64,000 bases of DNA, taken from the NCBI GenBank assembly GCA_020152595.1, contig JAIGNY010001647.1, forward strand, positions 1,443,501 through 1,507,500. Direction: 5' to 3'. Position numbers and translations under genes: made by a program. Numbering within the stretch: position 1 is the stretch's first letter; each line of letters opens with the position of its first letter. A model generated the notes under the pieces. It ran no database searches. It saw only the letters and a program-made list of their open reading frames with translations, and was not told where the DNA came from. This document shows, in pieces, positions 22,936 through 61,474 of the stretch. Source of the DNA: Chiridota heheva (lineage: Eukaryota; Echinodermata; Holothuroidea; Apodida; Chiridotidae).

Positions 22936-22940
22936 GTTGA

Positions 22941-23157
22941 ACCGACGGATTAAAATCTGAACCGACGGATTAAAATCTGAACCGACGGATTAAAATCTGA
23001 ACCGACGGATTAAAATCTGAACCGACGGATTAAAATCTGAACCGACAGATTAAAATATTGCGGGCGATCGCCCAATACCCCCTCCCCCCCCCCCCTCCCC
23101 TCCCTCCCTCTCCCTCTTTTGGCTATTTTCCCCCTTCTGGCTACGCTACTGCTAACA
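22941..23157. repeat. Six-copy 20-bp tandem array in a truncated inverted-repeat element
   Basis: The unit ACCGACGGATTAAAATCTGA repeats at 22941, 22961, 22981, 23001 and 23021 without change, and a diverged sixth copy lies at 23041. It is followed by GGGCGATCGCCC, C runs and a right end that resembles GGCTACGCTACTG. The layout matches the element at 13045-13221, but no left inverted repeat is visible, so this copy appears truncated at that side. Confidence 0.85.
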
Positions 23158-24115: not shown

Positions 24116-24116
24116 G

Positions 24117-24946
<830 letters not shown>

Positions 24947-25001
24947 TATTTTGAGTTTTCAGACCAAAATATTCAAATTTATGTTTCTCCCCAAGTCCCT
25001 C

Positions 25002-25247
25002 TTGTGATGTATGACATGGCGGAAGTTCCTATTTCCTTGTGTAAACCCTTTATTTCTAAATTGCTGTTCACACATTTGTGAAAAATGGAAAGGAATTTTA
25101 ACCTAACGTTTTTAAGTGTTGACATAGCCTTAGCCAAAATCTAGCAAGAATAGACTTTGTCATCATTTGCAGGAACTGAAATTTAGGAAGGAAATATAAA
25201 GAATTAAATCAAGATTTTCAGCTACCCGCCGTGGTCATACATCACAA
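25002..25247. mobile_element. 246-bp inverted-repeat element (TTGTGATGTATGAC ends)
   Basis: The left end reads TTGTGATGTATGACATGGCG and the right end is the inverse of TTGTGATGTATGACCACGGC. Size and structure fit a MITE. No convincing target duplication was seen, and there is no open frame of note inside. Confidence 0.65.
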
Positions 25248-25249
25248 AT

Positions 25250-27350
25250 CTAACATAAATTATGCATTCACTGCAGATCGCTGAATTTTAATCAGTTATA
25301 ATTCAAAAACTATACGTGCTATTAACAAGATTTTAAAATTGTTACATTTAGAATGTAATGCTCTTTGTTGTAAGCTAATTTCTCGTGAGTTAATTTCTAG
25401 GCGTCCATAGACCTTTAAGATAAATACATCTGAAATAGACTTAGCCTCATAAAAGTCCTAAAAATTTCATAGATTTGAAATATACTTAGCCTCATAAAAA
25501 TGCTTTGCGTGAGAAGTACCCATATTTTATAATTTGATCGATCCGTGAAATGAGATTACTAAGAAAAACGTTGGTAAAATAATAACTTCTCGAAGACGAA
25601 AATAATCGCATGGTCATAACGTCGATTCTTCATTGTGACAGCAGTCGTTTCTACATATTGCTCTAATTTCCATTTTAAAATAGATTGTTTGGTTAAGTTC
25701 TATGAAGAAAGCTTATATTTCGTATCGATTTTTGGGAATGAAGTTCCCTTTTTGGGATGTTGACATCGAGCAGGTATTACATTTGTCATAAAACCTACCA
25801 TAAGAACGGCAAAAATATCAAACAATAAAGAAACACAGTGATGCTATGTCCTTAGATTTTTCTTAAAATAAGTACCTTTTGATCCAAATTACAAATCCAG
25901 ATTCCCAGTGTATTTGCTGCGGTTTATAGGGATATCACAGAGCATGCCAATATTATGCCCCCAACATCTACGACATTGCTACTTACAGCCCCCTCACTCA
26001 ATATTTCTGAAATAAAGTACACGCTACGTCCGCTTAAATCATTCCCGAAATAGACACCGTACGTACAGTGTATATATAATTTTACTATATGCATGGAGTG
26101 CGAGGGCAGTGATGCGTAAATTTTCGGTGGCCTTCAGATGTTCGATTTTCTAGCATGTGGAAAAACCGAACATGGCTGATGTAAGGGCGCGAATCTTTTA
26201 TGGGGAAGACGGGGAATTAAATTAACGCTTAATGTTCTGTACAATGTTCTGTGTACATTCCGTCAATTAACATAAATAAATGTTCTTTATGTAAATTTTC
26301 CGATAAAAGTTCGGATTTTCAGTTTTCTTTCAATTTCTTCTACGGTACAACAAGTAGCTGCTTGAACTTTCATTTGTAACACTTATTGAAAAAGAACAAA
26401 TATATGAATTTTTGTCCCCCGGAGTAAACGTTTCGTATCACATTTTCCTGTGGGCGATGAGATAATTCGCGGAAACTATTCAGCATTCAGAAAGCCCATC
26501 CACTTAAGCATAAGCCTAATATATTATTGCAGACATCATTTGATATTCTGCATGCATAAAATACTTACGAAATATTCCATGAGCTTAAATTCCCTTATGT
26601 GTTAAAAGCGAAATTCCAGTTGTATAAGAATCGATTAAGTTGCACACTTGACACCTATGTTGTAACTCTATACAGAGGCGGGGCATTAATCATACCTGTT
26701 TTATTAGATTTTTCCGTTTATCTGGCTAGTTGGACGATGATCGTATAACAGTCAATACTAAATTTGACATGGTGATGAAAAAGCTACAAATCCTTTCGTA
26801 CAAAATATTTTACCTCCAATCTTACATTTTCCTGTTCAAACACAACCGTCACAAATTAATCTTCGCCATAGTAATTTCTTTAATGGAAATATTTTTACAT
26901 ATGAGCAAACTAAAACTGAATTTGCACATCAATTGCGCAAACAGCCCACACATGCACCCATTAGGAGTTGTTAATAAATTTAATAAGATTTCCGATTTAT
27001 AAGATTGAACATTATATTACTTAGTGTCACCCACGCAAATTACCTAATCAGATGTAATCGGGCTCACTTGTTTACGCAAAGTTTGCAACCTAATTTGGAT
27101 TATGGTTTTTGGAAAATAGATTTTTGTTCTAAAAGTATATAATTTTGACAATATCAGTTTTGTGTTTTTACTATTATGATTCTCTGGGAAATGTGATCCT
27201 TAAATACCTGGATTTGGGTTTATAATTGTTTTTAGAAATGGTTTAAAGAAGGTGTAACGCACAGAGATTGAATTGGAGGCAAATATGCAGTAGACAAAGT
27301 GGTGCCGGAAAATGTTCAGATGTCCGTTATAGTCTGGTTGCCAAATGCAA
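25250..27350. other. No gene seen
   Basis: AT-rich sequence with no supported gene. The 90-residue frame at 26730-27002 has no known signature. Confidence 0.6.
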
Positions 27351-27355
27351 ATTTC

Positions 27356-27467
27356 AGTTTTTGCTTAACTCCCAAAACAGTCCGTTTTTGCTTAACTCCC
27401 AAAACAGTCCGTTTTTGCTTAACTCCCAAAACAGTCCGTTTTTGCTTAACTCCCAAAACAGTCGGCA
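27356..27467. repeat. 27-bp tandem repeat, four copies
   Basis: TTTTTGCTTAACTCCCAAAA recurs four times at 27-bp spacing. Because 27 is divisible by three, the repeat keeps two plus-strand frames open, giving repetitive peptides that should not be read as a gene. Flanks 27470-27945 hold nothing recognised. Confidence 0.9.
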
Positions 27468-30874: not shown

Positions 30875-30880
30875 GCATGA
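30875..30880. repeat. Polinton target site duplication, left
   Basis: GCATGA abuts the left terminal repeat and is repeated at 45824-45829. Polintons make 6-bp duplications. One base is ambiguous: if the element begins AG at 30880, as Polintons usually do, the clear duplication is GCATG. Confidence 0.8.
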
Positions 30881-31270
30881 GTAGTATACAAAAGGCTGGT
30901 TCTGGGCCACTTTTGCATCATTTTTGCGTCTTTTTTTGTTTTTACTGCTTCTGGGCCACTTTTGCGTCGTTTTTGTTTTCACTGGTTCTGGGCCACTTTT
31001 GCGTCGTTTTTGTTTTCACTAGTTCTGGGCCACTTTTGCGTCGTTTTTGTTTTCACTAATTGGGCTGTGTGGTTCTGGGCCACTTTCTATGTCGTTTTGT
31101 TTCGGGCTGGCGCACTTTTGTGTTGTTTTTTATTTCCCCCTTTTGTATACTACTACGGGCCACTTTTCATGTCGTTTTGTTTTCAAGCCCCTTTTTTATG
31201 TTGCGTCGTTTTTATAGGTTCTGACGCACTTTTTATGTCGTCTACCCACCTATCTTGAAAATTTATGATA
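30881..31270 (+). repeat. Polinton left terminal inverted repeat
   Basis: The tip GTAGTATACAAAAGGCTGG matches the inverse of the right tip. Inside are tandem units of 37 bp starting GGTTCTGGGCCACTTTTGCG (for example at 30984 and 31021). The inner boundary is the shared block CTTTTTATGTCGTC followed by AATTTATGA. At about 390 bp it is longer than the right copy, because the internal repeats differ in number and because 31139-31153 holds an inverted copy of the tip, CCTTTTGTATACTAC. Confidence 0.9.
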
Positions 31271-31305
31271 GAAAAAAAAAAATATATATATATATCTTTT
31301 TATGT

Positions 31306-34300
31306 TTAATCCCTGTAGCCAAAGGCCCTAGTGGTGGGTGATCCACTCACAACCCAGCGCTTGGTATCGAGAGGTGACAAGGACATTTTATTTATTCGCG
31401 TGCTATATATAATGTGGTGTTCGCTTCTCAATAGATTCATACCATGACGAAATGTCTTGCTCTCATATAGTGTTTCTTTGTACTGCTGATGTATATTTTT
31501 TCACAACATACTTTTTAACACCTTTTGCTTTTCGGATCTCGCTTCCATCTTCCTTCAGGATATTATACATTTTGGGTCGAACCCTATATACTCGCTGATA
31601 AGTACTCCAGCACACTCGTCTCTCATTTTACCAAACAATTTTTTGTTCGTGGTGCTGTGGAGCGGGTGGTCTGTCAGATAATCACTTGTGTCATAGAGGT
31701 GTGACTCAGAACTTCTATCAGCATACACACACTCGCTTTGGATTTCAAGCAGAAGACTATCCGTATCCGTATAGAGAAGATTGCGCCGCTCCCCATATTG
31801 CTCTTTCAGGATATTATAATAAAAATCGTACATCAGATGTTTACTGAGGTCCAGGACACACATCTCAAATTCAAGCGTTTTGTGCAAAATTGATGATGAA
31901 ATTGGTCAAAATAACCCAGCTTGATTTACCAATAAGCAAGCATCAGCCGACGTTTGTGTATGTGTAGGACGACTAGATCATCATCAAATACCACATGCTT
32001 TGCAAACGCGGGCTAGCTATCTACCGGCGAAGCTTGTCATCTTCAGAGGCTCTCACGAGTTTGACGTCTACACGCAGATTTTCCATAGTCTTACCAAAGA
32101 CGCTATTGTTCTTCAGTTTGTAGAGGTCCTTCTCAAAGCTAATCTTGGCCTTCTTGTGGAGTTCTGTATTCATTCTAATGTAGGGTTCCATCCACTTGCT
32201 TTGGTCGAACCGAATTGCACGATGTATTTTTGTCAGCTTCATACCTAGAGAGAGGTAGAGTTGTAAATTTCGGTAGTGCACAACAGCGCTTTTTATCACA
32301 GAAATTGGGAACCAACTTTTCAACATCAGTTGACGAGTTTAGAAGCCCTTTCTGATAATCTGACAGCCACTCCTTTGGAACCTTCTTACGTTCGGGGGCA
32401 AGTGGATATGCATAGCTCCTGAGGATACTCAAGGTCCACCTCGAGTATGTAATCCTTTTCTGCAGCGGGTGAAGGCGTCTCCAGCAAGGGCACTTCATCC
32501 GCCCACTCGAATCTACCCGTGGGTAGTGCTTGACTCATCGCCCAACCATACAGGTTATTCGCATCTAGGTAGAGAATATGATTGTAAGGCTTGGAATCGT
32601 CATAGCCTGAGACGTAAGGGTTGTTGGCTTTAGCATAGCGCTTGGATACCATGGAAATACCACCTCTCATACCTTTCTCAATAAACAGGTGCATGTCATA
32701 GTCAGTTAACACTTTCAATTCTACACCTGTATATTTCAAGAGTGCATCCCAGGATAATCCAGAGCTTGTATAATAGTGTGCTGAATCCAGACCATACTGC
32801 CTCAAGCAAGTCTTCTGATATATCTCGAAGACATCAGCTAGTAGAAGCACATCAGTCCGCAGGTATAGGTCATAATAATCTCTCATAGTATAACATTCGA
32901 ATTACCCCCTTAACCTTCTGCGCATCTTGATGATCCTCATTGGAGATATGTTCCTCCGTAAGCTTGCTATGATAGAAGGCATCTTGCGGAGGTAGGAACT
33001 CCCCAAACCGTTCCCACGAATCCATATACTCATAGGGATAAATCCCCTTACGCAATAACAATTGTCTCTTTTTATCATTCGATTCATATTCAGTTGTGAC
33101 ACGGAAGTCAACGGAGTCGTTAGCCGCAACCAGCTTATCAAATGACGCAAGCAGGAATTGTGCGCTAACGATAAACCTCAACTGACCTAGGGAGAAGGAT
33201 ATATATTTCTCCATGTTATTGGGGATGCAGGTTATCTTTCCTTCCACTTTGCTGATGGCTTGCATGATCAAATGAGAGTCATAGCCCCGCAGGTTATGGA
33301 AAACAACTGGGATTGTGGTTGGTTTGGGGCTCAGGCGCAACTTCAGGCTGCAGGCATCGTGCGCAGCACCTCTGTACTTACCAGTGATATGGCAGTAATT
33401 GCGGACAGAGTCACCATGTAGAGGTTTTTACATATATGACAATCCTGTGCTGTCTGGTGTACGCGCCAATCCTCTCTGGTGATTAGCATAGGTCAAGGGT
33501 TTGCCAGAACTGCTTTGATCTTAATTTCTTCCTGCTGCAAAGACTCATGGAACTTCTCAGCTGCATTTGTCCTCGATATACTACCGGAGGTTCTGTACGA
33601 CCATCGCATCTTACCACAACATACCCATAACCACACGCTTCGTGCTGTTGAGTCTTTTGGGTATTGGATTATTCGGGATTGGATCCAGGACCATCTATCT
33701 TACAGGTCACTGCCTCAAAATCTGCGTAGATTACGTAGGGCGCTGGAAGCTGCTTGTGATAGTTCTGGAAGGACAGCTTGTTTTTGCCTTCTTTCGACAT
33801 CTTAATACATACAGCTGTTTGACCAGGTACCATGCAATCAGGTCTATGGGCCTCGAGCAGATCTTCCCTGGAATAGCCATACAGACACCTCTCACAGAAG
33901 TGCTTACGCCTTTGATTGGCACTTTGATCAAAGAGCAGGCGGCTGAGGCTTTTGACCTACGTGTAGTGGAACTTGCATGCCTTCTCAATCGATAGAAGGT
34001 TGATCCTGGGGATGTTCTTGTCTTGTTTGCTGAGTCTGTGAACAATCATCCCTTTATTTCAACCAAAGACATTAATAGCCAGATTGTTTTGTTTTTCAAT
34101 CTTCCCAATATGGAAGAGTGGAGCTGGAGCCTCCATTCCTTTAAAGTTTAAGCCGTTTTTTGAGGAATACTTGTTGCATCTTTCTGGATATTTCTTGGCT
34201 GGAAACAGAACAGATCGGAGAGCCCAGCGAAGACAGTTATCATCACGATTTTTCACATTGATGATAGTCTTTTTAGCTATGAGTTCTTTCGACAAACAGA

Positions 34301-34653
34301 TATAGGACCCACTGCGTAGTGGTTGATACCGGGCAATATTTAGCCAGAGGTCCTTTACTCTATTCACCATCTATCCTAACCGTCTTTGAGTCCATTTCTC
34401 AAGAGATTCTATCATCTGTGGGGAAAGCGTTGTTGAGCGCTGCATCAATCTCATTCACTTGCAGGACATCCATCTGATGGCTGCGAAATACTGGATTTGT
34501 GAACTCTGTTTCTCCATCGATATTATCCTTCTTTAGTCCCAATCTGAGTGCTAACTGGAATTTTAACCCGCGAAGGGTTCCAACCTCTTCTGCTCCCTTA
34601 CGGTTAATTGCGAGGCAAAGATCATCCAACAGGGCTAGTGGGTCAGCTCCCAA
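31306..34653 (-). pseudogene. POLB: Protein-primed family B DNA polymerase (Polinton POLB), broken
   Basis: This would copy the linear element from a terminal protein primer. Landmarks in order on the minus strand: an N-terminal block at 34399-34653; the KNRDDNCLRWALRS block near 34250; a Cys/His finger and the exonuclease I motif YADFEA near 33700-33930; exonuclease II NLRGYDSH near 33290; exonuclease III YYDLYLRTD near 32880; polymerase motif A YLDANNLYG with its aspartate at 32563-32565; motif [12 protein letters not shown] near 32110; motif C YTDTDS near 31770. The reading ends at 31306-31308 just inside the left repeat. Catalytic motifs remain, but stops and at least five frame breaks separate them. 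The span of about 1,100 codons is normal for the family. Confidence 0.95.
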
Positions 34654-34678
34654 TTAGTCCATCTGCGATATTCATCTG

Positions 34679-34975
34679 TCAACTGCGGAGGTAAATACCA
34701 ATTGTCCCAGGAGCCTGTCTGAACCTTGGTGCAGGCACAGGTTTAGGAGCAGGAACATGCCTCGGTGCTCTATGAGCAGGAACCGACCTTAGTGCTCTAG
34801 GAGCAGGAACCGGTCTGCGGGCTGGCATATACTTATGAGCGATGATGGCATCTATGTAGTCCCTTTCAATATGTTTTCCTTTTTGACCTGATGGGTCATT
34901 AAGGAGAATATTGTTTTGAACCACATAGTTTCTCAACACCTCGACTCTCTCTCTCTCTTCTAAGTGCAGTTTTAT
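34679..34975 (-). pseudogene. SAP-like, proline-rich N-terminal region, probably of POLB
   Basis: An open frame of about 98 codons upstream of the polymerase, on the same strand, with no usable ATG. The first half is a short helical domain resembling a SAP/LEM-type DNA-binding fold (VEVLRNYVVQNN, then an ERDYIDAIIAHKY helix). The second half is a proline-arginine-alanine linker with repeated PAPR or PAPK units. Polinton polymerases often carry such an N-terminal extension, so I read this as the broken start of POLB, but it could be a separate small gene. It ends only 26 bp from the next block. Confidence 0.55.
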
Positions 34976-35122
34976 TTAAGTTATTCATCATACGCTGCTA
35001 TACTATAGTATGCTATTTTTCTAATTGGTCGTAGCACAGATTTGTATACTATGATACACCATATCTCTAATAGGATGTTGCAACAGAATGGTCTTTAAGT
35101 TCTGCGAGCACTTCTTGAAAGT

Positions 35123-35365
35123 TTATACAAGCTTGTTTTTCAATGTACATAGTTTTTCAACAACCCTTCTACCACCGCAACCACAGCAAAGTTGTGTCTG
35201 AGAACAAACACCAGCCCCACACTTGCGGCATAGTACTATTGGACGCTTACGATTTCTAATCACTACTCGATGCTGCCAGCATTGATCATACATAACAGGT
35301 CTTCCACACGTTTCTTTCTTACCTAGCGGTAGCCAATTACACTTGTTCTCTGCACGTACTGACAT
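35123..35365 (-). CDS. Small cysteine-rich zinc-ribbon-like protein
   Basis: An intact 80-residue frame starting with ATG, between integrase and polymerase on the same strand. It has an N-terminal C-x(10)-C pair and a C-terminal cluster, LCRKCGAGVCSQTQLCCGCG, with two CxxC-type knuckles that could bind one zinc ion. The C-terminus is basic. Small zinc-ribbon proteins of this kind occur in Polintons, and a nucleic-acid-binding or transcription role is plausible, but the function is unknown. It is one of the few genes here without a stop or frameshift. Confidence 0.7.
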   Translation of the reverse strand: MSVRAENKCNWLPLGKKETCGRPVMYDQCWQHRVVIRNRKRPIVLCRKCGAGVCSQTQLCCGCGGRRVVEKLCTLKNKLV

Positions 35366-35406
35366 CTTATATCGTTATAATACCCTATCTCTAATTGCAT
35401 GTTGCA

Positions 35407-36381
35407 TTATTTCGGTGGAGGCTCGGTGTTGTGAGGAACGATCAACAACTCTTCACGGAAAAATCCACGGTCCGGACCATCTTGAAGATAGTATAGGACA
35501 GGCTCCCCAGGCTTTGTACCAAGCCGTCTTATCCAATGAACATTGACAGACAACACAGGGTCTGTAGCACGACGTCGACCTCCTTCCAGCTCACCTGGTT
35601 GGTATAGATAACGCATTGAAACATCGGTAGGTACTTTTTGCTCCTCCAAGCCAACAGGGCGATCAGCTGGAGATGCTGATTTCTGTTTCACCATTTTAGC
35701 TTTGATAGCATTAACAGGCTTCTTTCTGATCAGTCGTGTGACTTCGTTGTTCAAAGCTGAAACAACGGCAGGTAGTTTCTCTACCCATTCTGTCGATCTC
35801 TCTCCCTTTGGCAATTCCATTTCCTGAGCATACTGATGTCCGAAGAACCGTTCTGCAAGTGTACGATTAAACCGCTCTGCAAAAGCTTGATCGCGATGAA
35901 TGTCTGGGATTCCACGTCTCACCTCAACATCATGCTTCTTTAATGTATTAATTACATAACCCATGAACTCACGCCCTGGATCCACCTGAAGTAGTTTCGG
36001 CTAATCGAGTGGACTACGATTATAGATGCGAGTAAATGCAGAAGCAACCTGTGTTGAGTACTTCGAATTTAAAGGCTCAGCCTCTTTATACCGACTTGCA
36101 ACATCGACCACAACTAATGCATATTTATAAGTCTAGCGTCCAACTTTGTTATGCGGTAGAAACAAGAGGTCGGCTTCATGGACTTGATTTGGTGTAGAAA
36201 TCTAAAACTTAGGTCGTGCTATATAGTGGGGAGGATACAGGTAGATCTGCCACATAGCCTGCTTCTTTAGCCAAGCTTGGAATTTATCTTCAGATACTTT
36301 TACAGCTTTTGCAAGTTTCTGTATATCTGGAGTTCCTCTCCAATACCCCTGAGGGCTATAATATATCTTTGCTAGTTTCAT
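35407..36381 (-). pseudogene. INT: Retrovirus-like integrase (Polinton INT), three in-frame TAG stops
   Basis: A frame of 324 codons from ATG at 36381, open except for three TAG codons. The rve catalytic core shows a first aspartate in HEADLLFLPH, a second in QVDPGREFMG, and the glutamate about 35 residues later in QAFAERFNRTLAE, a DDE arrangement. A C-terminal block (YQPGELEGGRRRATDPV to FFREELLIVP) resembles the chromo/SH3-like tail of Polinton integrases. The enzyme would join element ends to host DNA and make the 6-bp duplication. All three stops lie upstream of or just before the second aspartate. No frameshift was seen. Confidence 0.93.
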
Positions 36382-36412
36382 CTTATATTAGACATATACA
36401 TATGTATTTAAT
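36382..36412. promoter_or_regulatory. Divergent start junction between INT and capsid genes
   Basis: Only 31 bp separate the integrase start (minus) from the capsid start (plus). The stretch is AT-rich and contains the perfect 12-bp palindrome ATACATATGTAT at 36396-36407. Such a short gap must hold overlapping promoters for the two arms, or the promoters lie inside the coding ends. Promoter function is inferred. Confidence 0.45.
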
Positions 36413-37716
36413 ATGGCAATAAATTACGGAAAGAAACTAACGCCCACACGAAGGACCCGTACAGGTCTGGGTGTGAAAGGTGTACGCACAACTCATCAAG
36501 TTACTCTTGATACCCCAACGGCCACAGCAGGTAATCACGTGATTGTCAAATTCCCGAAGCTGCAGCAGCATCATGTCATTGTCCCAGGCACAGTCAGAAT
36601 GGCCTTCAACTTTACTCTGAATAGCACAGATGGGAATCGCATTATTATCAACAACATAGGCCGCAACATTGTGAGCAAACTAGAGGTAACACTTGGAGGT
36701 GAGGTTGTCATGAGTTTGGACAGCGCAGATGTGTTCTACAACTATGCAGACCTATGGCTCTCCTATAACGCGAGAGATAACGCTGACTACCAGGGCATAA
36801 GCAGAGAAAATTGTTTTAAAATTCGTGTAGGTGCTAGTGATAAAGCTGATAATAATAAGAGTGACAACGCGATTGCTAAAGCTTTTGGCAATAGATTTTC
36901 TATACCATTAGATTTTAGTCTTTTAAGTGGTCACGCCCCATTTTACCCATTAGGTCTGCACGATTGGCTTAAATACATCACATACTTTGCACCTAACGAG
37001 AAGGTTATCATTGCAAACGATGACACCAAGGCCTCCTACACTCTGAACAACTTGACTCTGGAATTTGATAATGTAAATCAAGCGAGCCTTGAGCAGAGAT
37101 CCGAAATAAAATGTTGAATGAATACCTGGTAAACTATACAGATATATAGAGGCACCGGAGAGAAATGCTAGACCTCACTAGCTTTATGTGGACTTTCCCT
37201 TTGAATTTACCTCGACACAGTACCAGCGGTGTTGTCCTGTTGTTCGTCAAACAAGTTGATGATAGTGGCTTTGCACAAAAACCTGAGACTTTTATGAACA
37301 CCGACATCACTAAGGTCAGTGTAACCATTAAAGGTGTTCCTAACCAGCTATATGCCTAAGGCATTCTCCCATACCAGCACTGGGACGAGGCTAAGAAGGT
37401 ATTCGGCCCAGAAAGATTGTCCATGAGCGAGGGCCTTAATCCCGATGTAGGCTTAGTTGTTAAGGAGATTGGCCTACATTTCATCGATTTATCAGATTAC
37501 CTCAAAAAATACTACGCACTTGTTCTTGATCTGCGCAGCACCGATGATGATGCGTTACATGGTAACGGCTGCAAGCTGGGTAACGGTAGCGTAGGCATGA
37601 CTTTGGAGATCAACCGCACTCCTGCAGATGAAGGTACAGTGATTATGTACTACTTCGTGCTCTCAGATAAACAAATGGTAATCAAGAACGGTCGCCTAGC
37701 CAGAGTGTGGAGTTAG
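36413..37716 (+). pseudogene. MCP: Candidate Polinton major capsid protein (jelly-roll), broken
   Basis: About 434 codons. The first 234 are open (36413-37117). A frameshift near 37108 and a TAG near 37147-37149 precede the piece from 37165, and a TAA at 37357-37359 precedes the last piece (37417-37716). It is rich in predicted beta strands, with landmarks GRNIVSKLEVTLGGEVVMS, ADLWLSYNARDNADYQGI, SGHAPFYPLGL and, near the end, VPNQLYA and QHWDEAKKVFGPE. These blocks match a family I recall as recurrent beside the polymerase and packaging ATPase in invertebrate Polintons. Capsid function rests on that context and size; double jelly-roll structure was not tested. It would form the capsomers of a virus-like particle. 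Confidence 0.75.
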
Positions 37717-37735
37717 ATGTAAAAACTATATAAAA

Positions 37736-38309
37736 ATGGATTTACCAAGAGATCCCCACACTGCGATTATATGCGGTAAAAGGGGCTCTGGAAAGACACA
37801 TTATGTGTTAAACCTATTAGAAACCAGCTATTCAGGTGTATTTGCAAGAATTTTCATAGTATGCCCCACCTGGTCCTACAATCAAACCATACTTACAAAG
37901 CAAGTCCCTTTCTGATGACTGCAGTGTCTTCTTTCTAAATTCATTTGCAGATTAATTGCAAAAGTATCTTGAAATCATAAGCAAGCTCTACCAAGGTATA
38001 ACTACCCTCTCCATAGTCGATGATTGTTATGCAGAAAGTGAACTTGTAAAAAAGAGGCGAACAATATTAAATTTAACTTTTTCAGGTAGACATCATCAGC
38101 ACTCGCTATGGTTTACTGATGTACATGAGCAGAATGAGTGGATTGCTTTTTTTCACTGCAAGTCATCCCATTGCTTTCATCTAGTTATGAAAGAAAGCAG
38201 TGGCATTCCACAAGAAAAGTGGCAAGAAATCCGTGATAAGCTATCAAGCACAAAGTATGCTAAACTTGTGTTAAAAAGTGGACCACCTTTTGAGTACACA
38301 ATTGAGTAA
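37736..38309 (+). pseudogene. ATP: FtsK/HerA-type genome-packaging ATPase, broken
   Basis: Starts 20 bp after the capsid gene. Walker A is GKRGSGKTH at residues 14-22 and Walker B is LSIVDD in the second piece. Later blocks are TFSGRHHQHSLWF and a lysine-rich C-terminal KYAKLVLKSGPP. A double stop and frameshift near 37910-37920 split it, and the sensor region after SLWF looks shorter than usual. The span of 191 codons is slightly short for the family. Polinton ATPases of this type pump DNA into the capsid; position directly after the capsid gene fits. Confidence 0.9.
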
Positions 38310-38311
38310 GT

Positions 38312-38775
38312 AATGCTTAGTAATAGTCAAGTAATGCTTAGTAATAGCTAGGTAATGTTCAGTAATGTTCAGTAATAGTTCAGTAATGCTTAGTAATAGT
38401 TCAGTAATGTTTAGCAATACTTCAGTAATGCTTAGTAATAGTTCAGTAATGCTCAGTAATGCTCAGTAATGTTTAGTAATAGTTTAGTAATGCTTAATAA
38501 TAGTTCAGTAATGCTCAGTAATGCTTAGTAATAGTTCAGTAATGCTTAGTAATAGTTAAGTGGTGCTTATAATTAGTTAAGTAATGCTTGGTAATACTCA
38601 GTAATGCTTAGTCATGCTCAGTAATGCTTAGTAATAGTTCAGTAATGCTTAGTAATAGTTCAATAATGCTTGGTAATAGTTCAGTAATGCTTAATAATAG
38701 TTCAGTAATGCTCAGTAATGCTTAGTAATAGTTAAGTAATGCTTAGTAATAGTTAATTAGTGCTTAGTAATAGTT
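38312..38775. repeat. Degenerate 21-bp minisatellite inside the Polinton
   Basis: About 460 bp made of variants of TTCAGTAATGCTTAGTAATAG, with units of GTAATG and GTAATAG alternating. It starts three bases after the ATPase stop and ends just before the next gene. Stops occur in the forward frames, so it is noncoding. Its expansion may have happened after or during element spread. Confidence 0.9.
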
Positions 38776-38780
38776 AGGAG

Positions 38781-38924
38781 ATGTCCAGCGCCATATTGAA
38801 CACAGCATTATTAATAATCATACTTGCACTACACCTGTGGTATGCTTATCCCATTGTAGTGCGTGTTCGTCGAGTGATAATGAATATTAATAGTCTTGTA
38901 GAAACACTAGATGAGCCGTCGTAA
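38781..38924 (+). CDS. 47-residue single-pass membrane protein
   Basis: An intact short frame directly after the minisatellite. Residues 5-27 form a clear hydrophobic segment (ILNTALLIIILALHLWYAY), followed by the basic stretch RVRRV and a polar tail ending DEPS. This would be a type I or II small membrane protein. Polintons commonly carry one small transmembrane protein; its role in the particle or host membrane is unknown. No homolog was identified, and the call rests on position, a sound start and clear topology. Confidence 0.5.
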   Translation: MSSAILNTALLIIILALHLWYAYPIVVRVRRVIMNINSLVETLDEPS

Positions 38925-39058
38925 GAGCCATCACAAGGTGACCACCGCAAACAGCTAGCTGTCGTTATCCATGGAGGCATGTCCATGACTGTTTAGGAAA
39001 GTGTATTTCATCTTATCAGCTTCAAGAGATGTCTGGTGCAGATGTGGAATGATTACAT

Positions 39059-39651
39059 GGTGTATATGAGGTCCGTCTTGGTAATAAAATGACTAAAAGC
39101 TTGGGGAAAACAGCAATAAATTTATATGCACGTGCAACAGCCACTATATTTAACATTGACAATGAGCAGGCCCTTGCTACAGACCTTGGAGAAGATCCCT
39201 TTATAAACACTGCATTCAGAAGTATTAGTTGCAGACTATTCCATAAATGGGGGTTCTGGATTGTACCAGTAAGTATGGTTCTTAAAAGTGGGCGTCATAT
39301 TGAATATACAAACACAAATGATATAAACAATGAAGATACAAAGGTTGAAAAACCCCAAGAGGGTGGAAGCCGGGAAACGTGCTGCGGAGACATGCAAGGC
39401 ACGGATAACGATGGATGTCCCGTATTCAAAGGAGACTGAGCGCTTTGAAGGGGAACTTCAGGAAATGACAAAAGAAACCCCAGCGGCCACCCGCTGCAGA
39501 GACAGATCCGCCTAGGGCTTCTTGGGATATTTGGTGGGGTGTACTAGCTGCTGCTGTCGTAGTTGCTTCTGCTGCTGTAGTTGTAGCTCAAAATCACCAT
39601 ACACCTAGTCCACCCAGCCCCCCCCCCCCCTCACGCCTGAAAACCAATTGA
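39059..39651 (+). pseudogene. Basic Polinton-associated protein with C-terminal membrane segment, broken
   Basis: Three frames line up as one gene. The first piece (39059-39439) holds VRLGNKMTKSLGK and FHKWGFWIVPVSMV. The second (to about 39500) has the basic block KNPKRVEAGKRAAETCKAR. The third ends at 39649-39651 and holds an Ala/Val-rich transmembrane segment after ASWDIWWGV, then a proline-rich tail. Two frameshifts are needed. The family recurs in Polinton-like elements, by my recollection, but its function is not known. The basic central block suggests contact with nucleic acid or capsid, an inference only. Confidence 0.55.
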
Positions 39652-39684
39652 ACATAACTGCAGATGGTTTATATATACTAAACA

Positions 39685-40281
39685 ATGACGCAGCCTAACT
39701 AAGTTATCGATTCCCTGTAGCAAGGCGGAACAATAGCTTTACTAGCCACGGGTTATGCAGTCCAAGGAAGTGCTGTTATGAAAAGCTTGAAGCCACCACC
39801 CTCGTTAGAGATGAAACCTCGTGATGTAGCACTCCTTGCATTGGACGTTACAGCAGCTACTATGACTCGTGAGTGGCTAGTTTCCCAAGGTATCATTCCT
39901 GATATCAGATCGTTACTACACCACCCAATTAAATATATATGTCTGATAGACGATGGCTCCGATTGCCTTGCTTGTTGGTGGGCTGTAGTAAACGCCCCAA
40001 CATTTTCAGGTTCAAACTTTGTATTTAGTCAGATTGCCAAGGATCCAGCTGCACAGGAAGAACAAGCGCGTCATGATAAAGCCGTGGAAAAACTGCAGGC
40101 AGCTCAAATTGAATGGGCTCGTGATAGGCAAGAGAAGCTGGATAGGATGAATCAAAGACTTATGGCAGAAAGACGTGCTGTACAGACCTTCAGAAATGTA
40201 GATGACGCAATGAGATTTTACAAGGCTTTTATTACAATTGCTACGATTGGAATAGGGTCTGCTTATTTCTTGCTAAATTGA
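39685..40281 (+). pseudogene. Coiled-coil protein with C-terminal membrane anchor
   Basis: The frame from ATG at 39685 runs 198 codons, with TAA and TAG near its start. From 39778 it is fully open. Hydrophobic GGTIALLATGYAV lies near the N-terminus. A charged helical region of about 60 residues (AAQEEQARHDKAVEKLQ onward) is a likely coiled coil. The last 20 residues form a membrane segment (ITIATIGIGSAYFLLN). If the upstream stops are real ancestral boundaries, the gene would start at 39778 instead. Polintons carry coiled-coil and transmembrane accessory proteins of this kind; the role is unknown. Confidence 0.6.
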
Positions 40282-40306
40282 AGTTAAAATCCATGATATA
40301 CTAACA

Positions 40307-41487
40307 ATGGAGGATATACCAATGGATGATTTTGATCGAAGGGATGACTTGGCTGATGACCCGACTGATGATCCGTACTTGAATTACGATTTCCTTCCCA
40401 TTGTACCCACTGCGGCTGAAACTAGCGTTGATGGGCTTGATTTGTCTATAGCAGAACAACAACGTGAAGTTGACAAGATTCAGCTTGTAGACAAATTTTA
40501 CGCTGATATGAAAATTGCTGGTACTCCAAAGTATGACTTATTTAAGTTGGATTCAGAGCATATTTTGTATCTAACACACTAAGGTAGTGATATCCGCTTC
40601 AACAACATTCGGACTGGTGGATGGATTTCCGTACCATCAATCAAGTTACAAAGAGGAGGGGTGGCGGGAATCAGGGAAGTATTTGGTGATAGACAAAATG
40701 CTGCTACCGAAATAGAGAATACGGCGTCTAACGTCCTTGATGACACAGATTACGATGCAACTGCACTTGTGGGTGATATCGACCAATCAATAGGGAAAAC
40801 AGATGTAGCTGTTCAGACTGATGCTCCCTTATTACCACTACGGGAGCGCATGGTCTCGACAAGCAGCATAGAACTATACGAGGTACATTATCGGCTCAAG
40901 AAAACAAGCTTGTGGAAACTGACCAACAACTCGCAGAGGCAAGAGACCGGCTCGAAGCAGCCAGCGATAAAGACGAAAAGACAAGTATACGTAGAGTAAT
41001 TGAACAGCTGGATGGTCTGCAAGACGCTTTACAGACTAGCATAGACACACTTCGTGGTGATCTGAAATCTCAGGTACGGCAGAAACGTGACCTTGCGCGT
41101 GAGCTTGTATATAGCGACCTTTCTCTGCGAGAAAACTTGGTTAAGTTGTGTCGAACGCAGGGTGTGACGATTGCTTCTATTCTGACCGCATTAGGGTTTA
41201 TAATATCCATTATCATACTGGCACTTGGACTGGAACCCGTGCCAACACCAGAGCCGACGCCGCCGCCAGATAATATTGTCAAAGTACTGGGTCAGGTGAT
41301 GAAACGTTTTGGTAAATGGCTCAGTGCAGCTGTACCGGGCATCATTGGTGGTGCCCTTTCTTTGCTTTTCAATCTTATTGGTGACACATTCACAAAGGCA
41401 TGAAAGGTAGGGAGTTACTTGTGGGCACTTATGCTTGCAATGGGTGGTGCACTTATCGCATGGGTATCCAGGCGATTAAAGAAAAGA
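40307..41487 (+). pseudogene. Large coiled-coil/transmembrane protein common in Polintons, broken
   Basis: An acidic N-terminus (MEDIPMDDFDRRDD) leads, after one in-frame TAA at 40580-40582 and a frameshift near 40905, to a coiled coil (KTSIRRVIEQLDGLQDALQ) and the hydrophobic block GVTIASILTALGFIISIIIL. A proline-rich spacer and a second hydrophobic stretch (PGIIGGALSLLFNLIG) follow. A TGA at 41401-41403 is followed in frame by another membrane segment, LWALMLAMGGALIAW, so the original protein probably ran on to about 41487. The GVTIASILTALGF family is one I recognise as a frequent companion of Polinton genes. Its function is unknown. Confidence 0.75.
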
Positions 41488-41511
41488 TATCATATGATAT
41501 TTAATACTACG

Positions 41512-42185
41512 ATGTATTACAGCACGCATATCGTCACCGGAGAACCCACCAATTTCCAATTCCCGCTCCAGGTAAGCGAAGTAGGAGTCAATGATGTGTG
41601 CTTTACCAGTGCTTAGTATAACCTTGATAAGGATGGCAAGATGGATATTTTGTCATTTGATAGTGAAACGGCCAGGATAACAAAGGTTGAGGCTGGCCTG
41701 TATAATTTCAATATGATTAAAAGAAGATTAGATAAAGGGATCGGTGCAGGAGGTTTTGATTTCCAGTCGGCCACTTCACTGATCCGTATAACTGTGCCAG
41801 ATGGGCTTGCGCTTCTTTTAAGTGAAAATCTCTTAGTGCTATTGGGATTCAAACTTACCAATGAAAATAAGGCAATGAACCCAGGTGTGAATAGGAGCAA
41901 TCGTGTACCTCCCCTTATGATGGATCTTTCATTAAGCATTCACCTCCGAGACTTAGATGTTTCGCATAACCTTATTGATGGGCATCCCACGGATAGACTT
42001 GGTGAATTTCTTGTGAATAAGACTGATATAGGCTGAATGACTCATATACGATATAGTCATCCAAGAATGCATCGACTTCCAATGATGTGCTGAATACCAT
42101 CACCTTAAGAGGTACGAAACAATCATATGGTAAACCTTTCAATAACCACAATCTCCCCAATGAAGTTACATTGCTATTGAAATAA
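41512..42185 (+). pseudogene. Penton/minor-capsid-like protein, copy 1, broken
   Basis: Starts MYYSTHIVTGEP and aligns along its length with copy 2 at 42189. A TAG at 41614-41616 stands where copy 2 has tryptophan in GWYNL. A TGA at 42034-42036 and a frameshift near 42080 break the end, but the last codons still read EVTLLLK before TAA at 42183-42185. The shared pattern, an N-terminal strand, WYNL, VPP and a final beta-rich segment, resembles the single jelly-roll minor capsid (PY/penton) proteins of Polintons. That assignment is from pattern memory and was not tested. It lies 3 bp upstream of its sister. Confidence 0.65.
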
Positions 42186-42188
42186 TCG

Positions 42189-42863
42189 ATGTATTACAGC
42201 ACATATCTAGTCACCAGAAAACCAAGAAACCTAGTAGAAACCCCTCTTCAAGTGAAAGAGGTTGGTATCACAGATGTGATCTTCGCCAAGGGTTGGTATA
42301 ACCTGAAGGAGCATGGATTTTTAGACATTAGATATTCAGAGGATAGGCGAATTCAACGAGTAATCATTGAACCAGGCATCTATACTTTCAATACACTTAA
42401 GAAAAGAGTTGAAAGGGAGATAGAAACAGAAGAAAGAGGAAGTGTGTTCTTAGAGCAAAACACTTTACAAATCAAATTAGTCATACCGGCTACTTGCGAA
42501 GTCAAATTCAGCAGTAACTTTATATATTTCTTGGGAATGAATTTCACGGATGAATGGGTGGGTGCAGGTGTATATAGGAGTGATCACGTGCCTCCCATTT
42601 CAAGGGATCTTTCTATATGTATTCACCTTCTGGAATTAAATGTCACTCGAAACTTTGTTGAGGGACGTCCTAGCAATAGACTGGCAAAAATGACTGTAAA
42701 TGAAGAAGTAGGGGAAACTACTCACGTAACATATTCACATCCCATGATGCATCCTCTTGCTAGAGATGTGTTGAACACTATCACCTTAGAAATGCGTGAT
42801 GGCTATTGCCAAATTATACATAATAATTATTTATCAATTGAAGTGACCTTACTATTGAAATAG
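42189..42863 (+). CDS. Penton/minor-capsid-like protein, copy 2, intact
   Basis: An unbroken 224-residue frame, the longest intact gene in the Polinton's rightward arm. It shares start (MYYSTYLVTRKP), centre (VEVG/VKEVGITDV, GWYNL, RSDHVPP, DLSICIHL) and end (EVTLLLK) with copy 1. The beta-rich sequence without membrane or catalytic motifs fits a capsid vertex (penton) protein. The tandem pair must come from gene duplication within the element, because the copies have diverged strongly in sequence yet keep the same length. Why copy 2 lacks lesions while its neighbours are broken is unexplained; chance is possible. Confidence 0.7.
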   Translation: MYYSTYLVTRKPRNLVETPLQVKEVGITDVIFAKGWYNLKEHGFLDIRYSEDRRIQRVIIEPGIYTFNTLKKRVEREIETEERGSVFLEQNTLQIKLVIPATCEVKFSSNFIYFLGMNFTDEWVGAGVYRSDHVPPISRDLSICIHLLELNVTRNFVEGRPSNRLAKMTVNEEVGETTHVTYSHPMMHPLARDVLNTITLEMRDGYCQIIHNNYLSIEVTLLLK

Positions 42864-42865
42864 CT

Positions 42866-43480
42866 ATGAAAGTTGTTGACAGCATTTATCCAACATTACC
42901 ATCAGCTCCTCCTAGGGAGAGAGCCAGCAATTTCCGTTTACAACATATGACACAACTAAAAAGTTACCTTGAAACCGAGATTTCTACTCCACAAATCTAA
43001 GCCGCAAATACACACAGGTCTCCCATGTGTTTGAAGCAGTAGACACAGTGCTTATACTAACAACCGTGGGACCTGGTGCAGCTGGAATAGGTGTTTTGGC
43101 TACGATTGTTGCTGCACCAGTAGCAACTGCTATGGAAGGTGCTGCTGATGTATGTGGTCGTTGGTAGTGTACTCTGTATTATTTAAGAACACGGATAGAT
43201 AAGAAAGTTGCATCGTCAGATTACAACAATTGCTTCCTCTAAGCTTAACAGCATCGTAGACCTTGTCAGTAAAGCCATTGAAGATGAGGACGTTTCTGCT
43301 TCGGAATTTAAGACTGTCGTTGAAGAATTTGAACGTTTTAAAGTCTTAAAAGAGAAGACCCGAGCTGCTAAAATGATTCAGTTAGGTGAGGATGAAAAAA
43401 GCAGCTTCTGGAAGATGGGAAACAAATTGGGCGGCAGGAGGCGCAGTTGGCTATTGCCAAAGCACTGGGTGAAGCCTTAA
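42866..43480 (+). pseudogene. Polinton-associated protein with glycine-rich hydrophobic centre, broken
   Basis: Starts 2 bp after the preceding stop: ATG at 42866 and SIYPTLPSAPPRERA. A TAA at 42998-43000 and a frameshift lead to a hydrophobic Gly/Ala/Thr-rich stretch (LTTVGPGAAGIGVLATIVAA) ending in TAG at 43165-43167. A further shift leads to a helical C-terminal region (SSKLNSIVDLVSKAIEDEDV, FKTVVEEFERFKVLKEKTRA). I recognise the C-terminal helix family as recurrent in invertebrate Polinton elements. Overall about 205 codons. Membrane association is suggested by the centre; the function is unknown. Confidence 0.6.
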
Positions 43481-43534
43481 GTTAAGCTTTCAGCGAGTTC
43501 CACCTCCATATTGAAGACATCATGATATGTATAT

Positions 43535-44560
43535 ATGGCAGCATTTAAACACATCCCCAGACATGTGCTAGGGGCTCCTGTTTGGCAGGATGCTGAGACT
43601 GTGGGTGTGAGTAATCTAACAGAACAGCGGTTATACCCAGGCGGTTCAAATCAGTACTTCTTGGCAAGGTTTTAAAACATCTTTAAAAACTACCGAATAC
43701 ACAGCGTACATGATGATGCCACTGTCAAAAGGTGGCGTTTCGACCCTATGATGTTTTGGCAAACGCAGTTGAACTTTTCCCTGTGTATTGCCGCGGATAG
43801 ATGTGGTGTTTCTCCCGAGCAGATGACTAACTACAAACAATGGACGGTTCGCATGATTTATCGCTTTCATGTGTACTACACCATACGGAGAACATTGAAA
43901 AGACTGGAAGTTTGTCTACCAGATGAGGATAACGTTGACCCTTACAATAACCCGTACAGTGACGGGGCGTTAAAGCAAATGTGTGATGAGTTTGGGACTT
44001 CGCCGGAGGTTACCCAGTGAACCCCACCAGGGATTCCAAACTAGGGACTAGAGATACCCTGGAAGTGGTACTCAACCACTTATTACCCTATCCAGTATGT
44101 GGCAAACGACATGGGTATCATCAGCAGCAATTACTATGATAAGAAAATCATGTCATTTGGTGACCTGTCAGCGATGCTGACCATCGACTACATCAGTCAA
44201 CCATCGAACATGAAAACTGGCTACTTAAAAATAATCAAACCAACTAGTGATGGTTTCACAGACCTTGGTATCAACTATATCAACAACAGCATTCGTGTTC
44301 TTGTGTGGGCTCTTTTAGATGTTCAAGCACAAACTCGCAGTCAAATTCTTGGTGGTGGTCTGGATGCTCAGCAACAATTTATTCGTAATGTTGAGGATGC
44401 GGTGGCTGCTCCTATAGATCTCCCATCTTCCATTCAACGTTATCAAGGTACTCTGACCTATGCCTTAACTCCTTTAGATTTCAGTCTGGGTCAAGATTTG
44501 TACATGATTCCTAGCAATATGCTTTTGCGTATAGATAGCCAAAATATTTTTCTGTCATAA
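43535..44560 (+). pseudogene. Polinton-associated 341-codon protein, three in-frame stops
   Basis: A single frame from ATG at 43535 to TAA at 44558-44560, interrupted by TAA near 43670-43672, TGA at 44018-44020 and TAG near 44042, with no frameshift. Landmarks: PRHVLGAPVWQDAETVGVS and GGSNQYFLARF near the start, RWRFDPMMFWQTQLNFSL near residue 70, a central YNNPYSDGALKQMCDEFG, and DLYMIPSNMLLRI at the end. By recollection this family sits at the end of the structural arm in related elements. It has no membrane segment or enzymatic motif that I recognise, so a structural or virion-associated role is only inferred. Confidence 0.6.
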
Positions 44561-45499
44561 ATTTTGAATAGTGGTGGGCCCAGGTATGAGAAAAAGCGTT
44601 ATAATAAGTGCACCAGTCCGATTTATAAAAACGAAGACTTTGTATTACTTTAACGTAGCTTGCTTAGAATAGTGGGTTAATTAATGAAAAATGCAGTACA
44701 TCTGAAAATGAAAGAGTACATATATCCTGAAACACTGCAAATCATTCAGCTATTTCCAAAACACAAAAGAGATACAAAAAAATAGCAGTATGAAATGACC
44801 TCTGTGAATTGAGTAAATATTGGTTTACCACATAACTCTCACATGGCGTGAAATAAGGTCAAATGAAAATACGTGTTAAATAGGTGAAATTACATGTTGA
44901 ATATTCATTGCTTGAATATTTGTATGCAAATAGGGTATCTAGAATACTTTTTTCTGATTTACTTCAAAAGATAAGTAAATATTTGTGCGTAAAAAATAAC
45001 AAAACAATTTGGTATGCACAATCAAACAATTTTGTATATAAAAATATTGGAAGGGTAAATTGTAATGACGTTTATAAATAATTGCAATGTATACACTGCT
45101 AATATTAGTATTGTATAATGTAATGGGTATATAAACAGTTTTGGACGTTGAATAATTGCCCGGGGTGAATGACTCTTCATTCGTGAACAGCGGCGCGGCA
45201 AGATCTCAGCAGCGGTGGACAGAGCACTCGAGGAGTCTAGTCTGCTGAAGTACAAAATGATGGTCGATGGTGACATGTTGGACTGTTGATCCCACGTGGC
45301 GAAGCTACTTAGGCTGGGCTAGGAGAGTGATATAATCTGTAAATAGGTGTACCTTTAGGAAGATGAACTAAAAAAGGCAGGAGCGAGCAGAGGTTGAAAT
45401 TGTAGTTAAAAGTGGCTCCTGCCTTTCTCCCACTGAAGTTTTGCTGTTCTTTTATTTATTGGTAAAAAATATAAGTAAATAAATAATTACAATATCTTT
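44561..45499. other. Polinton right interior, no established gene
   Basis: About 940 bp between the last recognised gene and the right terminal repeat. Mostly AT-rich, with one GC-richer patch at 45160-45300. That patch holds a plus-strand frame of 38 codons without an ATG at its start (45173-45289, beginning LFIREQRRGKISAAVDRAL). It may be the decayed end of a captured or lost gene. Confidence 0.5.
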
Positions 45500-45823
45500 C
45501 TGTCATAAATTTATAGGCGGGTGGACGACATAAAAAGTGGCCTAGAACCCCCAGCCCAATTAGTGAAAACAAAAACTACGCAAAAGTGTGCCAGAACCAG
45601 GGAAAACAAACACGACGCAAAAGTGGCCCAGAACCAGTGAAAACAAAAACGACGCAAAAACGACGCAAGAGTGGTCCAGAACCAGTGAAAACAAAAACGA
45701 CGCAAAAGTGGCCCAGAACTAGTGAAAACAAAAACGACGCAAAAGTGGCCCAGAACCAGTGAAAACTAAACCGACGCAAAAACGACGCAAAAATGGCCCA
45801 GAACCAGCCTTTTGTATACTACC
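45500..45823 (-). repeat. Polinton right terminal inverted repeat
   Basis: Read on the minus strand it starts GTAGTATACAAAAGGCTGG (one extra base at 45823), continues with several units of GGTTCTGGGCCACTTTTGCG, and ends with CTTTTTATGTCGTC and AAATTTATGA, as in the left repeat. About 324 bp. Unit number and order differ from the left end, which fits unequal exchange or slippage after the two ends were last made identical. Confidence 0.9.
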
Positions 45824-45829
45824 GCATGA
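45824..45829. repeat. Polinton target site duplication, right
   Basis: GCATGA, identical to 30875-30880, follows the right terminal repeat. Confidence 0.8.
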
Positions 45830-59780: not shown

Positions 59781-59879
59781 CTATGTGCATGGTCGACAGT
59801 GGCAGCAAATCTATGAATATTTAAATCCAGAGAGGCTGTCTGATTGTTCGTGTATATATATTGGTCTGATTGTTTGTTG

Positions 59880-60293: not shown

Positions 60294-60419
60294 AGGTCGA
60301 TCAACATATTTCCATACTCACTTCTAATATCCAATCTGCAATCTCTCAGTGCATCCCTACTTTTACCCCCCGTCCCCATCGCTCACCCCTTCCTCGCCAC
60401 ATACTCGCCCTCATCTAGG

Positions 60420-61465: not shown

Positions 61466-61474
61466 GCCACCTGG

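What the first reader, a model, noticed from the sequence alone, without database searches (positions are those of the whole stretch)
30875..45829. Complete-ended Polinton/Maverick with readable gene map
Both terminal repeats, a GCATGA duplication and about twelve genes can be placed, so the element can be dated and classified. The divergent two-arm layout (replication left, particle right) is preserved although most genes are broken.
Basis: partly seen in the sequence, partly recalled or inferred. Interest (0 to 1): 0.75.

Follow-up and report, generated by a model that had tools for sequence, protein, structure and literature searches.

The report
Decayed Polinton virus-like transposon copy
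This is an old, broken copy of a virus-like jumping element (a Polinton, also called a Maverick) that sits at well over a hundred places in one animal genome; its ends and gene order are still readable, and it is a clear but fairly ordinary member of a known kind.

Summary
The finding is real. Window 30880-45823 (14.9 kb) is one complete-ended, decayed Polinton/Maverick copy. Its inverted ends carry the Maverick motif (AGT)2//(ACT)2 (last base mutated on the right) and consist largely of 37-bp tandem units. Left arm (minus strand): integrase, a small Cys-rich gene, family B DNA polymerase. Right arm (plus strand): major capsid gene, packaging ATPase, seven further genes. Most genes are broken. 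The same 1.1-Gb genome holds 281 family tips (backwards control 0) and 153 capsid matches from 150 scored of 697 candidates. Ten sister copies are 84-92% identical along long blocks. Corrections: the target duplication is 5 bp (GCATG), not 6; of 12 end pairs, 6 match exactly over 5 bp, 4 differ at one base, none match over 6. The ATPase lies in the capsid arm, the integrase in the polymerase arm. No Ulp1/adenain protease was recognised, by weak tests. An AGTAAT array with about 10.5-bp spacing follows the ATPase in 10 of 10 sisters, well phased in 9. The only animal names among 120 listed capsid relatives are molluscs (Mytilus, Elysia). Dating is only relative. New member of a known kind.

The parts
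30875..30879 (.). left copy of 5-bp target site duplication GCATG
   Evidence: 5-bp length from 12 end pairs
30880..31258 (+). left terminal inverted repeat, begins AGTAGTATAC, contains 37-bp tandem units (30922-31057)
31555..34370 (-). DNA polymerase gene, family B, in six open pieces; OTU-like stretch at 34062-34370
   Evidence: PF03175 E 5.7e-6 and 0.0015 in 2 of 5 window pieces, 4.9e-9 in sister L043, none in the 525-aa sister frame of L037; motifs read by eye; OTU label recalled, with PMC11071308
34402..34975 (-). N-terminal polymerase region (terminal-protein position), with three 27-bp proline-coding repeats at 34744-34824
   Evidence: matches in 10 sister arms, dN/dS 0.38 and 0.48; repeats; terminal-protein role inferred from position
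35126..35374 (-). small Cys-rich (zinc-ribbon-like) gene between integrase and polymerase
   Evidence: matches in 10 sister arms, dN/dS 0.42; weak Zn_ribbon match E 0.19
35410..36387 (-). retroviral-type integrase gene, broken (pieces 35410-36000 and 36205-36387)
   Evidence: rve E 3.4e-9, 1e-8, 4.6e-8 in sisters L041, L018, L019, 2.7e-4 in L031; no Pfam match in window piece 35410-36000; mean nucleotide identity to sisters 0.88-0.91
36392..37716 (+). major capsid protein gene, broken by a frame change and a stop
   Evidence: frames; own-genome copies; 591 homologues of a sister frame, one named Major capsid protein; Capsid_N in 28 of 30
37700..38309 (+). A32/FtsK-type packaging ATPase gene, broken by a frame change
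   Evidence: PF04665 E 1.3e-5 in the first window piece, none in the second; 1.2e-9 in sister L034
38309..38771 (+). array of 34 AGTAAT motifs spaced mostly 10/11 bp (best period 10.40), between ATPase gene and g3
   Evidence: family-wide 2953 pattern places, control 0
39053..39439 (+). g3, unknown (sister frame 230 aa with N-terminal hydrophobic stretch)
   Evidence: 8 sister arms, but dN/dS 1.35; 39% identity over 120 aa to a gene beside a capsid gene in L082
39721..40281 (+). g4, unknown; open frame lacking about 93 bp at 40223/40224 relative to sisters
   Evidence: 8 sister arms, dN/dS 0.41; gap
40277..41403 (+). g5, coiled-coil-like protein with C-terminal hydrophobic segment, broken
   Evidence: longest sister frames 396-429 aa; weak Spectrin match E 0.0056, below cut-off
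41404..42036 (+). g6, one of two tandem paralogues, broken by an in-frame stop
42186..42863 (+). g7, second paralogue, full-length frame; minor capsid (penton) role is a guess
   Evidence: 42-46% identity of the g7 sequences to P0007 of the g6 group
42973..43480 (+). g8, small protein with hydrophobic alanine/glycine stretch, broken
   Evidence: 9 sister arms; dN/dS 1.25 and 0.71
43676..44560 (+). g9, broken and missing its 3' end (about 400 bp absent at 44543/44544 relative to copy C2161)
   Evidence: 144 homologues of a sister frame
44561..45512 (.). variable, apparently non-coding subterminal region
   Evidence: shared in part with C2161, C944 (inverted), C80, C3612 and others
45513..45823 (-). 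right terminal inverted repeat with 37-bp tandem units (45562-45781); last base of ACTACT changed to C
45824..45828 (.). right copy of target site duplication GCATG

Best explanation
One decayed copy of a large Polinton/Maverick family. SHOWN here: inverted ends of Maverick type, a 5-bp target duplication, homologues of family B polymerase, integrase (in sisters), packaging ATPase and a capsid-gene family, two outward-reading arms, and many relatives in the genome. INFERRED from established knowledge of Polintons: the linear element was copied by a protein-primed polymerase starting at the repeated AGT tips; its integrase joined the ends to staggered cuts 5 bp apart, giving the GCATG duplication; the right arm coded for a capsid into which the ATPase packed the DNA. 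After insertion this copy drifted and collected stops, frame changes and deletions.
For: Ends and duplication; Pfam matches DNA_pol_B_2, Pox_A32, rve, Capsid_N; 591 capsid homologues including Mytilus edulis and an Elysia marginata entry named Major capsid protein; (AGT)2//(ACT)2 is the commonest end motif of vertebrate Mavericks (PMC8097293, section 4 part 1 read); ten sister copies with the same gene blocks, apart from deletions and inverted stretches in C3112 and C944; dN/dS below 0.75 in 23 of 25 gene pieces.
Against: No Ulp1/adenain protease recognised among 40 window and sister ORF pieces scanned with Pfam nor by a crude motif scan of 10 right arms. Jelly-roll folds could not be tested: both structure models were useless (pLDDT 34 and 36). 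TSD is 5 bp, while vertebrate Mavericks have 6. Capsid_N match is weak (16 bits against a cut-off of 24 for P0005). Three of five window polymerase pieces and a 525-aa sister polymerase frame had no DNA_pol_B_2 match. The frame as annotated has the lowest dN/dS of three frames in only 17 of 25 pieces.
Confidence: 0.96

Rival explanations
1. The two inverted repeats belong to two different insertions, or the element is a composite of several elements that landed together.
For: TIR identity is only 84-92%; the family has many single ends in the genome, so chance pairing is conceivable; the joined-flank empty-site search did not complete.
Against: Same 5-mer directly at both tips; collinear gene blocks in ten sister copies apart from deletions and inverted stretches in C3112 and C944; 11 inward-facing end pairs 7-16 kb apart, the window included, among the 100 places listed.
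Confidence: 0.02
2. It is better called an adintovirus or polinton-like virus integrated from infection than a transposon that spread in the germ line.
For: Published adintoviruses share an OTU-bearing polymerase, an rve integrase and capsid genes (PMC11071296, section 16 read). The categories overlap.
Against: Many copies and a star-like capsid tree suggest amplification in this lineage; homology to adintovirus hexon references was not tested.
Confidence: 0.25
3. The TSD is 6 bp (GCATGA) as first read, with a one-base asymmetry of the element ends.
For: GCATGA on both sides in the window; in 3 of the 6 exact pairs (window, C411, C47) the next right-hand base is A.
Against: In the other 3 exact pairs (C80, C2235, C1520) it is T; 0 of 12 pairs match over 6 bp with symmetric ends.
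Confidence: 0.05

Closest known systems
Vertebrate Mavericks/Polintons (PMC8097293; outline, section 4 part 1 and passages seen)
   Same: (AGT)2//(ACT)2 tips; TIRs of a few hundred bp (published 46-1,447 bp); about 15 kb (published 12.7-24.6 kb); polymerase, integrase, ATPase, capsid gene; two gene modules; most copies decayed; strong amplification in some hosts (287 in axolotl).
   Different: TSD 5 bp instead of 6; modules point outward (there mostly inward, outward in Rhinella); integrase lies with the polymerase and ATPase with the capsid gene (there ATPase with polymerase, integrase with capsid genes); protease not recognised; 37-bp tandem TIR units and a phased central array, which the section read does not mention.
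Adintoviruses / meldviruses (PMC11071296; outline and section 16 seen)
   Same: rve integrase, OTU-like stretch before the polymerase by motif, capsid gene; duplicated pentons are reported there.
   Different: Hexon/penton relationship and integrase chromodomain not tested. Four IMG/VR scans confirmed no relative: capsid piece, polymerase piece, capsid alignment, g9 alignment; these scans start from short peptide patterns.
Mavirus-type endogenous virophages (EMALEs, PMC8547959; passages seen)
   Same: Integrated, TIR-bounded, with TSDs: that paper gives 5-6 bp for mavirus and Maverick/Polinton elements and mostly 3-5 bp for EMALEs.
   Different: Named capsid relatives here are animal; the polymerase has an exonuclease-type N-terminal stretch by eye, which mavirus has largely lost (PMC11071308, section 11).

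Membership tests
[quoted passage not shown]
   PF03175 E 5.7e-6 and 0.0015 in 2 of 5 window pieces, 4.9e-9 in sister L043, none in sister L037; protein priming itself not testable
Polinton/Maverick | Retroviral-type integrase | tested here: met
   rve in 4 of 4 sister frames, 3 above cut-off; the window fragment gave none. NCBIfam gave IS481 (E 5e-14) and IS3 (3.1e-8) transposases for L041, far below their cut-offs; kinship of such integrases with IS481/IS3 is stated in PMC2836005 (passages)
Polinton/Maverick | FtsK/A32-type packaging ATPase | tested here: met
   PF04665 above cut-off in window and L034
Polinton/Maverick | Double jelly-roll major capsid protein | tested here: inconclusive
   Capsid_N in 28 of 30 members, best E 5.2e-5; PDB profile searches found nothing relevant; structure model failed
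[quoted passage not shown]
   g6/g7 or g9 are candidates; g7 model pLDDT 34; g9 profile no PDB match and no consistent Pfam match
Polinton/Maverick | Ulp1/adenain cysteine protease | tested here: inconclusive
   No match among 40 ORF pieces scanned; motif scan of 20 arms gave 7 hits, all in left-arm polymerase frames; whole-genome family searches did not complete
Polinton/Maverick | Terminal inverted repeats with AGT-type tips | tested here: met
   motif from PMC8097293
Polinton/Maverick | TSD of 5-6 bp (6 bp in vertebrate Mavericks) | tested here: met
   5 bp: 6 of 12 pairs exact, 4 of 12 one mismatch, 1 of 12 two mismatches, 1 of 12 no match; 6 bp: 0 of 12; 5-6 bp from PMC8547959 passage
Adintovirus | OTU-like domain N-terminal to polymerase | tested here: inconclusive
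   Motif read by eye in window:34062-34370 and P0006; 59% identical over 92 aa to the same stretch in L082; no structure test
Adintovirus | Hexon recognisable by BLAST against adintovirus references; integrase chromodomain | not tested
   No reference set held; no chromodomain hit appeared in the Pfam scans made

The most novel reading that the evidence does not exclude
The family carries a dedicated cis-acting site: an array of AGTAAT motifs kept at about one per helical turn, always just behind the packaging ATPase gene, working as a packaging, replication-start or segregation signal bound by an element protein (loosely like the spaced packaging repeats of adenoviruses, recalled). Such a central phased site, together with 5-bp insertion and the swapped module content, would define a distinct invertebrate Polinton branch.
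Probability: 0.12. Interest if true: 0.55.

Novelty: new member of a known kind. Interest (0 to 1): 0.33.

Why it matters
It gives an invertebrate-type Polinton family with well over a hundred places in one genome, readable ends, and a gene partition unlike that published for vertebrates. That makes module shuffling, insertion rules and copy ages testable from one assembly. The phased array is a concrete candidate for a cis-acting site. Two literature searches (8 of 8 papers listed, 8 of 35 listed) showed no paper on such an array by title or abstract start; the full texts were not checked for it.

Tried and rejected
Capsid piece against IMG/VR, proteins and PDB: no relatives. Polymerase piece against IMG/VR and phages: none. 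Capsid and g9 alignments against IMG/VR: none; capsid alignment against genome contigs: one (L082). Capsid profiles against PDB: none and one chance match at E 1.8; g9 profile and g3: none; integrase piece: one chance match at E 0.49. PHROGs: nothing better than E 0.063. NCBIfam: only the integrase gave clear similarity, to IS481 and IS3 transposases below cut-off. Single-sequence structure models of 36416-37114 and 42189-42860: too poor for any fold search, so none was run. Rfam and tRNA scans of the window: nothing. Empty-site search with joined host flanks and protease family searches in the own genome: not completed. I rejected a coding role for the AGTAAT array: on the minus strand it reads as heptads in a 63-aa frame, but spacings of 31 and 32 bp break the frame in several copies. 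I also rejected strict conservation of its phase: copy C1072 has an array without phase (R 0.38). Host identity was not determined.
Full report
WHAT IS THERE. The window lies at C1642:1443501-1507500 of a 1.10-Gb assembly in 3744 contigs. Inverted repeats at 30880-31258 and 45513-45823 face each other and contain 37-bp tandem units. Their identity depends on how gaps are placed: 268 of 290 aligned bases with free gaps, 84% over 262 columns by BLAST, 51 of 60 ungapped at the tips. The tip AGTAGTATACAAAAGGCTGGTTCTGG occurs 127 times forward and 154 times reverse in the genome at up to 3 mismatches; the backwards control gave 0 and 0. The answer lists 100 places: 64 exact and 36 with one mismatch, the latter list being cut. 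The window's own right tip begins GGTAGT, one change away.

TARGET DUPLICATION. With AGTAGT...ACTACT as the ends, the shared sequence is GCATG (5 bp). I had both flanks of 12 copies. Exact 5-bp matches: window, C80, C411, C47, C2235, C1520 (182894-195959), 6 of 12. One mismatch: C308, C3253 (in a T run), C135, C1319, 4 of 12. Two mismatches: C2575, whose left tip is eroded. No match: C2161. None of the 12 match over 6 bp. Not counted because the opposite end was not in the stretch that I fetched: C469, C939, C577, C818, C3612, C1555, C3502, C1011, C1920. Of the ten copies, C1072, C2588, C1205, C764, C3112, C944 and the C1520 copy at 378507 had at most one readable end. A published passage gives 5-6 bp for mavirus and Maverick/Polinton elements (PMC8547959, passages), so 5 bp is within the known range; vertebrate Mavericks have 6 (PMC8097293, section 4 part 1).

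GENES. Left arm, minus strand: polymerase pieces 31555-34370 (DNA_pol_B_2 in 2 of 5 pieces; in sister L043 but not in L037), an N-terminal region 34402-34975, a Cys-rich gene 35126-35374, and the integrase 35410-36387 (rve in 4 of 4 sister frames; none in the window piece). Right arm, plus strand: major capsid gene 36392-37716, ATPase 37700-38309 (Pox_A32), then g3 to g9. A sister frame of the capsid gene has 591 homologues; among the 120 listed, the names given are Mytilus edulis, Elysia marginata (Major capsid protein), MAGs of Candidatus Thiodiazotropha, and hypothetical proteins. Of 30 members scanned, 28 match Capsid_N weakly. g9 has 144 homologues and no known family. g6 and g7 are tandem paralogues, 42-46% identical across groups. 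g3 is 39% identical over 120 aa to a gene next to a capsid gene on another organism's contig, L082. In the window g7 is full-length; the capsid gene has a frame change and a stop, the ATPase a frame change, g6 a stop; g4 lacks about 93 bp that 7 of 7 sisters aligned there have, and g9 lacks its 3' end with about 400 bp present in C2161.

IS IT CODING. Over window-to-sister comparisons, dN/dS is below 0.75 in 23 of 25 gene pieces; the exceptions are g3 (1.35) and the first part of g8 (1.25). The annotated frame has the lowest ratio of the three frames in 17 of 25 pieces. The comparisons share the window copy and are not independent, and decay after insertion pushes ratios towards 1.

FAMILY AND AGE. 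The capsid piece has 153 matches from 150 scored of 697 candidates. Ten sister copies, taken from high-scoring capsid matches and partly for long frames, are 84-92% identical to the window along blocks of a kilobase or more, with shorter blocks down to 78%. A tree of 20 capsid pieces (window and 19 others) is star-like: all 17 internal branches are below 0.01; terminal branches run from 0.003 to 0.075 and the window's is 0.062, the second longest; dN/dS among the 19 is 0.50. TIR identity by BLAST is 84% for the window, 88% for C2161 (114 columns), 95% for C411 (413) and 95% for C80 (87). So this copy looks older than the three others measured. No absolute date is possible without host and rate. 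Published vertebrate counts reach 287.

LAYOUT. Both arms read outward. In vertebrates the modules mostly point inward; polymerase is grouped with ATPase, and integrase with the capsid genes and protease. Here integrase is grouped with polymerase and ATPase with capsid. Whether other invertebrate Polintons share this could not be checked; L082 shows a capsid fragment and g3 facing a polymerase fragment, but on a 4.6-kb contig.

PHASED ARRAY. Directly behind the ATPase gene lie 34 AGTAAT motifs at mostly 10/11-bp spacing (38309-38771). The array is present at that place in 10 of 10 sister right arms, with 10 to 56 motifs (one search leaves out motifs more than 60 bp from the cluster, one in C80). 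Best period is 10.40-10.55 with R 0.85 or more in the window and 9 of 10 sisters; C1072 is not phased (R 0.38). No other cluster of four or more such motifs occurs in the window. The pattern has 2953 overlapping places in the genome, control 0. Its printed list covers 19 contigs: on 11 (C1, C47, C80, C101, C168, C201, C231, C308, C334, C361, C469) the array lies within about 4.5 kb behind a capsid match on the same strand; on 8 (C3, C65, C71, C102, C145, C169, C278, C398) no printed capsid match is near, and both lists are cut. Tandem growth of a 21-bp unit explains the array without function; a cis-acting role is a guess.

PAPERS. Seen: PMC8097293 (outline, section 4 part 1, passages), PMC11071308 (outline, section 11, passages), PMC11071296 (outline, section 16), PMC2836005, PMC8547959 and PMC12220804 (passages). 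Kapitonov and Jurka 2006 was not held.

VERDICT. A genuine, complete-ended, decayed Polinton/Maverick: new member of a known kind, with modest points of interest in layout, TSD length and the array.

Noticed in passing
window 24120-24943: 824-bp (AT)n array, 95% matches; GC falls to 0.198 in 24001-26000.
   Followed up: no
window 2231-4891 (-) and 59779-62170 (+): Frames that look by eye like endonuclease/reverse transcriptase pieces of non-LTR retrotransposons; GC skew is -0.44 in 60001-62000.
   Followed up: no
window 22938-23056 and 13105-13153: Related 20-bp minisatellite units (TGAACCGACGGATTAAAATC, TGAACCGACAAGAACAAATC) at two places.
   Followed up: no
window 27357-27463: Four perfect 27-bp tandem copies.
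   Followed up: no
L053 (C577:700780-700866): One family end carries its first 11 bases twice (AGTAGTATACA AGTAGTATACAAAAGG), as slippage at a repeated tip might leave.
   Followed up: no
L082 1-4602: A contig filed under a Candidatus Diapherotrites archaeon MAG holds a Polinton capsid fragment, a g3 homologue and polymerase fragments, most likely eukaryote contamination.
   Followed up: partly
proteins P0041, P0042, P0049, P0188, P0209: g9 and capsid homologues named as proteins of Candidatus Thiodiazotropha MAGs; probably host DNA binned with the symbiont.
   Followed up: no
window 44531-44564 and 45479-45512: A 34-bp subterminal sequence occurs twice (82% alike), 948 bp apart, the first at the edge of the 3' loss in g9.
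   Followed up: partly
C152:98852-105783 and C1534:898960-906699: Inward-facing family end pairs only 6.9 and 7.7 kb apart, possible internally deleted copies.
   Followed up: no
L043:1439-2581 (-), a sister polymerase frame: A weak Endonuclease_7 match (E 0.00033, below cut-off) lies just before the polymerase match.
   Followed up: no
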